From: Promethearchaeota archaeon
Lineage (GTDB): Archaea > Asgardarchaeota > Lokiarchaeia > Sigynarchaeales > SOKP01
DNA length: 16,767 nucleotides
Direction of reading: 5' to 3'
Assembly: GCA_016839425.1 (NCBI GenBank)
Contig: JAEOUI010000363.1
Span: 1 to 16,767, forward strand
Shown here: positions 4,849 through 12,171 of the stretch, in pieces
How positions within the stretch are numbered: position 1 is the stretch's first letter
Layout of the letters: the number at the start of each line of letters is the position of its first letter
The notes under the pieces: model-generated
What the model was told of the DNA's origin: nothing
What the model saw: only the letters and a program-made list of their open reading frames with translations
Databases searched by the model: none
Translations under genes and position numbers: made by a program

Positions 4849-6097
4849 TTATTTAGCTGAAACAATTTTTATTATATCATTATTTTGAAGCTCATAGTTT
4901 TCACCCAACCTTTTTTTACTTCTCGCATCAATTCCAAATATGAAATGTTTTGCTAAATCACTATGTATTTTCTCTCCCACGAAATCACGGAGTTTAGTGC
5001 CCTTATTCACGAGGAATACATCTGGCAATACATTTCCATCATTATCAGTATAATTATTTGGATCTGAAACGGGATAAACACAGATCTGATTTGATATTGT
5101 AAAAATAGCACTATTCAATGCTTCTTGTATTCCAGTACCATTATAATTTTCTAATAAATTTTTTTTGATTTTTTCTAAGGTTTCTAATTCATTTTCTGTG
5201 AGTTTTTCAGGGTTTATAATCGTAAACTCCTTGGAGCCAGGAATATATTCTATAATTTTATTTTCATCATATTTTCTCAAAATATATTCAGCTAAGGCAC
5301 TACAAGCTATAATAGGATTCTTATATTTCTTTCTTAGAGCAATTAAATTCGCTTCACTAATCTCTTTATCAATTTTATTGGCTACTACGAGTATGGGTTT
5401 TGAAATTTCTCTTAAAATCCTTGAAAAATGATATAATTCGTCATCTGACCAAGAAGTTGGGTTTTTATTTTCTAAAGATGCTTCTTTTAAGCAATGAATT
5501 ATGTGCTCCTTTTTGATTTTAATGCCCGAAAGTCTTTTGTGAAGTTCATCAATAAATTCTCGAGTTTTCCCTGCGAATGCTTTTTTAAAGCGGTTCCAGT
5601 CGTCTCTTTCAAGGATCTCTTTATACCATAAATTAATTTCTTCTTCTAAAAATAATATATCTTCGTAGGGATCGTTCGATCCTTCAGTTACTTTTTTACC
5701 CATTTTATCTAAAGACCCTGTAATGTCAACAATATGTAATAAAACATCTGCTTTACTCAAATCATTTAAAAATTTGTTCCCCAATCCCTTGCCTTTATGA
5801 GCATCTGGTACTAATCCCGCTACATCTAATAAATTAACAGGAATAAATCTCTGTCCATTAATACAATTCGAATTTCGAGGATTATCTACTACATTCAATT
5901 CTCTACAGACACAATTTGTCTTGATGTATCCGATTCCCTTATTTGCATCAATCGTTGTAAAGGGTTGCTCGCTTACTTTAGCGCTCGTTAAGCAAGACGC
6001 ATTTAGAAAAGTGGACTTGCCGGAACTTAACCTTCTGGTAAAATGCATCTTTATCAAAATTTGGTTTTCCGACAATTCCTATTATTACATCTGTCAT
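4849..6097 (-). CDS. YchF/OBG-like GTPase with TGS domain, split by a 34-nt BHB intron
   Basis: Ribosome-associated TRAFAC-class P-loop NTPase of the OBG/YchF-like group. The start is ATG 6097 (MTDVIIGIVGKP). Directly after KP the frame breaks, and the rest of the P-loop (SGKSTFLNAS) continues in another frame. Removing 6060-6027 joins exon 1 (6097-6061) to exon 2 (6026-4849) and yields 404 residues with an intact G1 motif GKPSSGKS (10-17), switch I PFTTI, G3 DVAG, G4 NKID and a C-terminal TGS domain (about 330-404). Without splicing, translation could start only at a TTG (6075) or an internal ATG and would lack the glycine of the P-loop. Unspliced, the gene therefore cannot encode a normal GTPase. 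An inverted repeat precedes the start. Family assignment is firm; splicing is a strong prediction. Confidence 0.92.
6027..6060 (-). other. predicted 34-nt mRNA intron with full bulge-helix-bulge motif
   Basis: Read on the minus strand, all parts of the canonical hBHBh' motif are present. Outer exon helix: 6073-6067 (GUCGGAA) with 6025-6019 (UUCCGGC), 7 bp including one G-U. Central helix: AACC 6066-6063 with GGUU 6032-6029, 4 bp. Bulges: AAA 6062-6060 and AAG 6028-6026, 3 nt each, lying 3' of each central strand. Inner helix: UUUUG 6059-6055 with CAGAA 6037-6033, extended by UAAA/UUUA after one mismatch. Cutting after the second bulge base on each side removes 6060-6027 and restores the P-loop codon as AGT (Ser13, phase 1). 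Bulge size, helix size, cut position and frame restoration all agree. Confidence 0.88.
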
Positions 6098-6123
6098 ATT
6101 CAATAATTTAGATTGCTATATCT

Positions 6124-11828: not shown

Positions 11829-11866
11829 TAAAATCAACAACGGTGCCTCCGTAGCTCAGTAGGTAG

Positions 11867-11890
11867 AGCATCCGCCTAAGATGTGCCTAT
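11867..11890 (+). other. 24-nt intron in the D-stem of tRNA-Asn
   Basis: BHB fold: central helix AGGU (11861-11864) with GCCU (11885-11888), bulges AGA (11865-11867) and AUA (11889-11891), inner helix GCAUC (11868-11872) with GAUGU (11880-11884), loop of 7. Cutting after the second bulge base gives this interval. AGCA is repeated at both ends, so splice positions could slide by up to 4 nt with the same product. Position corresponds to tRNA 22/23. Confidence 0.82.
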
Positions 11891-11901
11891 AGCACCCGGC
11901 T

Positions 11902-11931
11902 AAGGTGTTTTATCTAAAAATACCTCCGGAA
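11902..11931 (+). other. 30-nt intron in the anticodon loop of tRNA-Asn
   Basis: Central helix CCGG (11896-11899) with CCGG (11926-11929); bulges CTA (11900-11902) and AAG (11930-11932); inner helix AGGUGUUUU (11903-11911) with AAAAUACCU, 9 bp with one G-U and a 5-nt loop. Cutting after the second bulge base joins CT to GTTAA, giving the loop CTGTTAA. Little outer helix is visible. Position is 33/34, not the canonical 37/38. Confidence 0.85.
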
Positions 11932-11984
11932 GTTAACCGGGCGGTCGCACGTTCGAGCCGTGCCGGGGGCGCTTATGCTTCCTC

Positions 11985-11990: not shown

Positions 11991-12082
11991 AAACTCAAAA
12001 ATTTTAAAATACAATAGAAAAATTTTAAACAAGAAGATGCAGAGAGAGGGATTTGAACCCCCGTACTCCTATGAGATCGGAT

Positions 12083-12102
12083 GTCTTATTTTTAAAAAAG
12101 AT
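12083..12102 (-). other. 20-nt intron at canonical position 37/38 of tRNA-Leu(CAA)
   Basis: Interrupts the anticodon loop after G37 (12103). Outer helix is the anticodon stem TCGGA/TCCGA, with bulges AGA and ACA at the proper places. The central helix CUCA with UAAG has one C-A mismatch, and the inner stem is A/U-rich. Boundaries can slide by up to 3 nt because ATC occurs at both ends. Confidence 0.82.
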
Positions 12103-12118
12103 CTTGAGTCCGACACCG

Positions 12119-12137
12119 ATAGCCGTATGTATATACA
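12119..12137 (-). other. 19-nt D-loop intron of tRNA-Leu(CAA)
   Basis: On the minus strand: central helix GGUC (12143-12140) with GGCU (12124-12121), two of four pairs being G-U; bulges AAU (12139-12137) and AUC (12120-12118); inner helix GUAU (12136-12133) with AUAC (12128-12125), loop of 4. Cutting after the second bulge base leaves GGTCAA-C-GGT, a normal Leu D-arm. At 19 nt it is close to the smallest intron a BHB can hold. Confidence 0.8.
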
Positions 12138-12171
12138 TTGACCGGGCTTGGTTATCTCTGCTTTTAGGCAA

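What the first reader, a model, noticed from the sequence alone, without database searches (positions are those of the whole stretch)
6019..6097. Protein-coding gene with a BHB intron inside its GTP-binding P-loop
The YchF/OBG-like GTPase is broken between KP and SGKST by 34 nt. The minus-strand RNA forms a complete hBHBh' motif: 7-bp outer helix, two 3-nt bulges on opposite strands around a 4-bp central helix, 5-bp inner helix. Cutting at the standard position (after bulge base 2) restores frame and gives GKPSSGKS, the exact G1 consensus. BHB introns in archaeal mRNAs are rare (cbf5 of Crenarchaeota is the known example); I know of none in this gene. The gene is unusable without splicing, so GTPase production would depend on the tRNA splicing machinery.
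Basis: partly seen in the sequence, partly recalled or inferred. Interest (0 to 1): 0.92.

Follow-up and report, generated by a model that had tools for sequence, protein, structure and literature searches.

The report
mRNA intron inside a GTPase P-loop
In several Asgard archaea, the closest known archaeal relatives of eukaryotes, the gene for a YchF-type GTPase is interrupted in its GTP-binding motif by a tiny tRNA-style intron that most likely has to be cut out of the messenger RNA before a working protein can be made.

Summary
A canonical bulge-helix-bulge (BHB) intron of 34 nt (6060..6027, minus strand) interrupts the P-loop of a YchF-related GTPase. It is the only strict BHB on either strand of the window. 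Excision at the standard bulge positions restores GIVGKPSSGKST.

Relatives make the case strong. The same site carries introns of 31, 31 and 32 nt in three other genomes, each restoring the frame; one central-helix pair has changed on both sides; exon codons are held to the helix. Fourteen of 199 listed protein clusters, the window's included, share the mis-read N-terminus. The intron is patchy: 12 changes on the gene tree sampled. Two other groups have BHB-like, partly relaxed introns at two other positions in the motif.

Two more genes have such inserts: cooS (2 genomes) and rtcB, the exon ligase (5 genomes), in conserved motifs; the rtcB structure is relaxed.

Splicing itself was not observed; no RNA data were available. 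The literature I could search names cbf5 of Crenarchaeota as the only protein-coding precedent. Kind: new members of a known kind (archaeal pre-mRNA BHB introns), in new genes and a new phylum.

The parts
6061..6097 (-). Exon 1: ATG plus 11 codons and 1 nt (MTDVIIGIVGKP + A)
   Evidence: Translation of spliced and unspliced reading; matches the N-terminus MTxxIGIVGKP of intron-free relatives
6027..6060 (-). BHB intron, 34 nt (phase 1)
   Evidence: introns of 31-32 nt at the same nucleotide in L081, L085, L087
4849..6026 (-). Exon 2: rest of the YchF-related (YGR210-like) GTPase, including G4-containing and TGS domains
   Evidence: Pfam PF08438, PF01926, PF02824; NCBIfam NF007171 479 bits
6067..6075 (-). 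BHB outer helix, 5' strand (UUGUCGGAA, exon 1)
6063..6066 (-). BHB central helix, 5' strand (AACC)
6060..6062 (-). 5' bulge AAA; predicted cut between 6061 and 6060
   Evidence: Standard rule (between bulge bases 2 and 3; PMC2738675 passage) restores the frame
6055..6059 (-). BHB inner helix, 5' strand (UUUUG)
6033..6037 (-). BHB inner helix, 3' strand (CAGAA)
6029..6032 (-). BHB central helix, 3' strand (GGUU)
6026..6028 (-). 3' bulge AAG; predicted cut between 6027 and 6026
6017..6025 (-). BHB outer helix, 3' strand (UUCCGGCAA, exon 2)

Best explanation
The 34-nt insert is an archaeal pre-mRNA intron of the BHB type. After transcription the exon flanks UUGUCGGAA and UUCCGGCAA pair and present two 3-nt bulges. 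The tRNA splicing endonuclease EndA cuts each bulge after its second base. The ligase RtcB joins the exons, giving the codons GGA AAA CCA AGT TCC GGC AAG (GKPSSGK) and a functional YchF-related GTPase. Unspliced mRNA stops after 39 codons, so the gene is a splice-or-stop gene. Shown: structure, frame restoration, conservation in relatives, codon locking, and EndA and RtcB genes in most related genomes checked. Inferred: the cutting and joining reactions themselves, and that the intron is old in Lokiarchaeia and often lost rather than repeatedly gained.
For: (1) Canonical BHB at the exact break, the only strict one in the window. (2) Splicing raises the PF01926 match from 54.6 bits (profile from 9) to 67.2 bits (from 2), and the product aligns through the P-loop without a gap to solved 1wxq. 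(3) Of 76 genomes of the same phylum whose P-loop DNA I read (73, 3), 67 are intact and 9 interrupted. Three of the 9 have the intron at the window's site, of 31, 31 and 32 nt; the window has 34. Lengths of 1 and 2 mod 3 both restore the frame. (4) L081 and L087 differ by 1 nt in intron length while exon 2 stays 91% identical, dN 0.040, dS 0.684. (5) Central-helix pair 2 is A-U, G-U, G-C and G-C in the four type-A copies. (6) Exon codons are held to the helix: GTC for Val 4 of 4 and GGC for Gly 4 of 4 in those copies, against 0 of 11 Val codons (0 of 32 rows) and 1 of 32 in distinct intron-free Lokiarchaeial rows. (7) Fourteen of 199 listed protein clusters, the window's own included, show the same mis-read N-terminus. 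(8) In a BHB+ORF scan of 1.596 Mb of carrier G109, its YchF intron ranks 2nd of 140 passing hits (17,019 structural hits); the 1st is cooS. (9) EndA genes in 13 of 13 and RtcB in 12 of 13 genomes checked, nine of these being the interrupted ones.
Against: No RNA evidence. The window's own genome is not held, so its EndA and RtcB were not seen; RtcB was not found in G001, itself a type-A carrier. The four DNA copies of the type-A intron are related, so covariation rests on few events, and L081 has one outer-helix mismatch. Other introns are relaxed: type B has an interrupted outer helix (the fold prefers a 2-nt 3' bulge); L084 of type C has a G-A at the central helix, its free fold is not a BHB at all, and another 4-bp register would cut at the wrong place; I chose the type C and rtcB registers knowing the required junction. 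The G109 scan filters were set after a first scan and with this gene in mind; that first scan showed no excess over random placement (33 observed, controls 26-45), and the second only a modest one (140 against mean 93, max 110; at the strictest cut 7 against mean 4.65, max 7).
Confidence: 0.94

Rival explanations
1. Translational bypassing: the ribosome hops over the 31-47 nt gap in an unspliced mRNA, as in phage T4 gene 60 or yeast mitochondrial byps (recalled).
For: Short inserts with hairpins that break frames would look similar; in type B the codon before the gap and the triplet before landing are both AAA (sequences).
Against: At the window's site the take-off codon CCA has no matching landing triplet (TTA, TTA, CTA and CTT in the four DNA copies). 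The type-A structure is a canonical BHB whose cut rule gives the right junction, and exon codons are fixed so as to extend the outer helix.
Confidence: 0.03
2. No intron: translation starts at the internal TTG/ATG and the P-loop simply begins RRLSSGKST or KRLSSGKST.
For: The frame is open there and the proteins are so predicted in 14 listed clusters.
Against: The first glycine of the P-loop would be missing in all 14. The alternative N-terminus exists only where the insert exists. L081 has a stop in that frame within the insert. Two further insertion sites in the same motif would need the same excuse.
Confidence: 0.02
3. Decaying gene (pseudogene) or assembly artefact.
For: Single-base errors and decay do break frames in metagenome assemblies.
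Against: One copy per genome at E<=1e-80 in each of the nine interrupted genomes; exon 2 under strong constraint in the one unsaturated pair; the same insert in several separate genomes and protein clusters.
Confidence: 0.01

Closest known systems
cbf5 pre-mRNA intron of Crenarchaeota (Sulfolobales/Desulfurococcales)
   Different: Other gene (YchF-related GTPase), other phylum (Asgard). The window's motif is canonical, whereas the cbf5 motifs newly predicted in that paper were unconventional in all but two species. Three insertion sites in one motif here, and a patchier distribution.
HVO_1309 5'-UTR BHB intron of Haloferax volcanii
   Same: 46-nt BHB intron removed from an mRNA by the splicing endonuclease (PMC7714728, section 13)
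   Different: Lies in the 5' UTR and does not break a reading frame
Archaeal tRNA and rRNA BHB introns
   Same: Same motif and presumably the same enzymes; two of three tRNA matches in this window have intron-sized insertions
   Different: Those are in structural RNAs, not in mRNA

Membership tests
Archaeal BHB pre-mRNA introns (cbf5 type) | Two 3-nt bulges on opposite strands around a 4-bp central helix | tested here: met
   Window and the three other type-A copies. Types B and C and rtcB only in relaxed form in part of the copies
Archaeal BHB pre-mRNA introns (cbf5 type) | Cut after bulge base 2 restores the reading frame and a conserved motif | tested here: met
   also in the 17 copies tabulated, where the register for type C and rtcB was chosen knowing the junction
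Archaeal BHB pre-mRNA introns (cbf5 type) | Presence/absence among homologous genes | tested here: met
   67 intact, 9 interrupted of 76 genomes read; patchy on the tree
Archaeal BHB pre-mRNA introns (cbf5 type) | Host has EndA (hetero-oligomeric type for relaxed motifs) and RtcB | tested here: inconclusive
   The window's own genome is not held. In 13 related genomes EndA 13 of 13, two paralogues in 10 of 13; RtcB 12 of 13, missing in carrier G001. Subunit assembly inferred, not tested.
Archaeal BHB pre-mRNA introns (cbf5 type) | Spliced mRNA observed | not testable with these tools
   No RNA data
YchF-related (YGR210-like) GTPase | G domain with P-loop, G4 domain PF08438, TGS domain | tested here: met
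   Spliced product: PF01926 67.2, PF08438 106.2, TGS 33.5 bits, all over cut-off

The most novel reading that the evidence does not exclude
Asgard archaea carry a whole population of mRNA introns of the BHB type, lodged in catalytic or highly conserved motifs where only exact removal is tolerated. One of them lies in rtcB, the gene of the exon ligase itself, in Jordarchaeia/Freyarchaeota-type genomes, so making the ligase would need the ligase and splicing capacity would feed back on itself. Gene expression in these relatives of eukaryotes would then depend on a spliceosome-free mRNA splicing pathway with built-in splice-or-stop control.
Probability: 0.5. Interest if true: 0.93.

Novelty: new member of a known kind. 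Interest (0 to 1): 0.86.

Why it matters
PMC7714728 (2020, section read) names cbf5 as the only earlier BHB mRNA intron in archaea. My searches (listings only) showed no title or abstract start reporting one in Asgard archaea or in YchF, cooS or rtcB. Here the phenomenon appears in Asgard archaea, in at least three genes and at three separate sites within one P-loop. It shows that gene prediction mis-reads such genes, gives an intron with many gains or losses in which the dynamics can be studied, and makes testable whether splicing controls expression of a translation-related GTPase and of the splicing ligase.

Tried and rejected
Plasmid search for the gene: no match. Viral contigs: 16 stretches matched a pattern, none encodes a relative. 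Own-genome search: not held. A radical-SAM-like gene (named from memory) at G109 C6:485690 passed the BHB+ORF scan, but its exon 1 has no visible homology support and the gene has its own ATG: rejected by eye. The other hits of the G109 scan look like AT-rich chance hits near ORF ends; they were not tested one by one. Translational bypassing, internal start, pseudogene and assembly error were considered (see rivals). P0051 and P0008/P0010/P0011/P0022 have odd starts at the P-loop and may hide further variants; their DNA was not at hand. About 106 further genomes with a match were not read at DNA level there and are in no count. The first tree left intron-free rows out of its change counts; it was redone with all rows labelled.

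Full report
What is in the window. The window (16,767 nt, 30.6% GC) encodes archaeal proteins (thermosome, archaeal TgtA, archaeal UMP kinase). The named nearest database proteins are Promethearchaeota (Asgard) sequences. On the minus strand lies a YchF-related (YGR210-like) GTPase: PF08438, PF01926, TGS, NF007171 479 bits. The frame from ATG 6097 reads MTDVIIGIVGKP and fails after 39 codons. The frame holding SSGKSTFLNA and the rest is opened by a TTG at 6075, outside the exon-1 frame. Removing 6060..6027 gives one 404-aa protein with GIVGKPSSGKST, aligned from residue 6 to 403 to solved 1wxq, without a gap in the P-loop.

The structure. The RNA of 6110..6000 folds with z -2.76 and shows UUGUCGGAA/UUCCGGCAA (9 bp), AACC/GGUU (4 bp), bulges AAA and AAG, and UUUUG/CAGAA (5 bp). 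A strict scan of both strands finds this one motif only; 20 shuffled windows average 0.45 hits anywhere.

Relatives at the same site. Of 80 loci from one scan of genome contigs (best 80 of 563), 4 are interrupted in the P-loop: L002, L018, L019, L045. In whole genomes of the phylum, 181 of 227 have the gene at E<=1e-80. I read the P-loop DNA of 76 genomes of the phylum (73, 3 with partial genes): 67 intact, 9 interrupted; the nine include the four loci just named. Type A, the window's site (CCA A|GT): G001 = L002/L081, Lokiarchaeia ABR15, 32 nt; G107 = L085, 31 nt; G109 = L087, 31 nt. Type B (in the Lys codon of GKP, AA|A): G002, G003, G096, G098, 45-47 nt. Type C (in the Lys codon of GKT, A|AA): G004 = L045/L084, Freyarchaeota SQRJ_82, and G160 = L131, both 31 nt. 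In these 9 and the window, cutting after bulge base 2 restores frame and motif. Lengths of 0, 1 and 2 mod 3 occur, which excision reconciles. Limits: type B has an interrupted outer helix and its free fold prefers a 2-nt 3' bulge. In L084 the central helix has a G-A, the free fold is not a BHB, and another register would cut wrongly; the register for type C was chosen from the junction needed and from L131, which has CGGG/CCCG.

Protein evidence. Searches list 199 clusters (best 120 of each answer). Fourteen, the window's own P0001 included, have the intron-frame N-terminus; P0012 starts beyond the P-loop, P0051 is odd, and the other 183 have an intact P-loop (P0111 was missed by the pattern but is intact).

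Evidence that the RNA structure is selected. In the four type-A copies central pair 2 is A-U, G-U, G-C and G-C. The exon side of that pair is the wobble base of Lys, so an intron base follows a silent exon change. Carriers use GTC for Val and GGC for Gly 4 of 4 times. Among 32 distinct intron-free Lokiarchaeial rows (48 loci given), GTC is used by 0 of 11 that have Val, and GGC by 1 of 32. The outer helix has 8-9 of 9 pairs in carriers and 5.8 on average in intron-free genes, though 4 of 32 of those reach 8. Thirteen clusters show Ser at the position that implies GTC; the fourteenth, the window's, has GTC in its DNA (inference from the frame). L081 and L087 differ in intron length by 1 nt, yet exon 2 is 91% identical with dN 0.040 and dS 0.684; the other pairs are saturated at silent sites.

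History. On a 70-row gene tree built without the intron region, 16 type-A rows need 12 changes (at least 10 forced by well-supported branches), and a single clade is rejected (p-AU 5.6e-75). The label is only weakly clustered (shuffled mean 14.5, as low in 22 of 500). The intron-free rows are a sample of 50; 15 of them were picked by hand, some because the first tree showed them beside carriers. Either the intron was present early in Lokiarchaeia and was lost many times, or it was gained repeatedly at one nucleotide. Similar intron interiors in distant carriers favour age plus loss, possibly by gene replacement or by spliced-RNA-templated loss as proposed for cbf5 (PMC2738675, passage). Type B forms one clade.

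Machinery. All 13 genomes checked (9 interrupted, 4 intact for this gene) have EndA; 10 have two paralogues, which suggests the hetero-oligomeric form said to accept relaxed motifs outside tRNA (assembly inferred). RtcB is in 12 of 13; it was not found in carrier G001, whose completeness is not told. In the window itself two of three tRNA matches carry intron-sized insertions, one of them two.

Two more genes. A first BHB+ORF scan of 800 kb of G109 showed no excess over random placement (33 against 26-45) but contained cooS. A second, rescored scan of 1,596,219 nt (contig C6 whole and 320 kb of C9, about a third of the 4.6-Mb genome) found 17,019 structural hits, of which 140 pass the ORF test. 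The best two are cooS (-43.5) and the YchF gene (-43.0); the next is -38.5. Random placement gave means of 93 (max 110) at the loosest and 4.65 (max 7; 7 observed) at the strictest cut, so the list as a whole is weakly enriched and only homology singles out these two. The spliced cooS product matches TIGR01702 over 18-621 of 621 in one stretch, 724 bits, and aligns through the junction APEY^MEQKA with a solved CO dehydrogenase. A second genome, G116, has a 32-nt insert at the same nucleotide; of 30 other cooS loci fetched, 25 were seen uninterrupted at that site and 5 were not matched by my pattern. In G116 one central pair is A-C, so it is relaxed. In rtcB, five genomes (G004, G080, G081, G082, G160) have a 30-nt insert with an in-frame stop between PD and AHQGYGF; of 23 rtcB loci, 13 were seen uninterrupted at that site and 5 were not matched by my pattern. 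The central helix is CCCG/CGGG in three and CCCG/AGGG in two; the outer helix has 2 pairs and is then interrupted, the free fold of L174 leaves 8 unpaired bases on the 3' side, and the inner helix of L176 is poor. The register was chosen from the junction needed. The Asp before the junction is, from memory, a metal ligand. G004 is a named Freyarchaeota genome and G082 shares a contig length with Jordarchaeia RPF2; that G080, G081 and G160 are their kin is inferred. No second full-length rtcB was found in G004, G081, G082 or G160; G080 is fragmentary.

How it most likely works. The BHB forms from exon and intron sequence, EndA cuts both bulges, and RtcB joins. The outer helix starts 22 nt after the A of the AUG, so a ribosome on the unspliced mRNA would open it and stop at codon 40. 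Splicing and translation would compete; this is inference. Introns in motifs that tolerate only exact removal should persist longest, which may explain why cbf5 (catalytic Asp codon), the P-loop, CooS and RtcB are hit in such places; inference.

Literature. PMC7714728 (section 13 read) names cbf5 as the only earlier BHB mRNA intron besides its own HVO_1309. PMC2738675 was seen as abstract and passages; PMC12397907 and PMC13149111 as passages. Searches (listings of at most 30 rows each) showed no title or abstract start reporting mRNA BHB introns in Asgard archaea, or in YchF, cooS or rtcB; preprints and most subscription journals are not held.

Noticed in passing
L174, L175, L176, L185, L196 (genomes G160, G004, G081, G082, G080): rtcB, the gene of the tRNA exon ligase, carries a 30-nt BHB-like (relaxed) insert with an in-frame stop between PD and AHQGYGF in five genomes: the ligase mRNA would itself need splicing.
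   Followed up: yes
L309 (G109:C6, 5' splice base 396833, minus strand) and L307 (G116:C41): cooS (anaerobic CO dehydrogenase) has a 32-nt BHB intron between APEY and MEQKA in two genomes.
   Followed up: yes
window 12038-12161 (minus strand): A tRNA gene with two intron-sized insertions relative to the Rfam model, one in the D arm region and one near the anticodon.
   Followed up: no
window 11845-11971 (plus strand): tRNA gene with a long insertion in the anticodon region (61 nt where the model has 7); ARAGORN did not list it.
   Followed up: no
protein clusters P0008, P0010, P0011, P0022, P0051: Homologues predicted as starting at GKPSSGKS, or oddly (VNYINCGKST); they may hide further introns upstream of or inside the P-loop. 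DNA not at hand.
   Followed up: no
protein cluster P0121: Carries the intron-type N-terminus but is labelled Candidatus Peregrinibacteria; probably a mis-binned Asgard contig.
   Followed up: no
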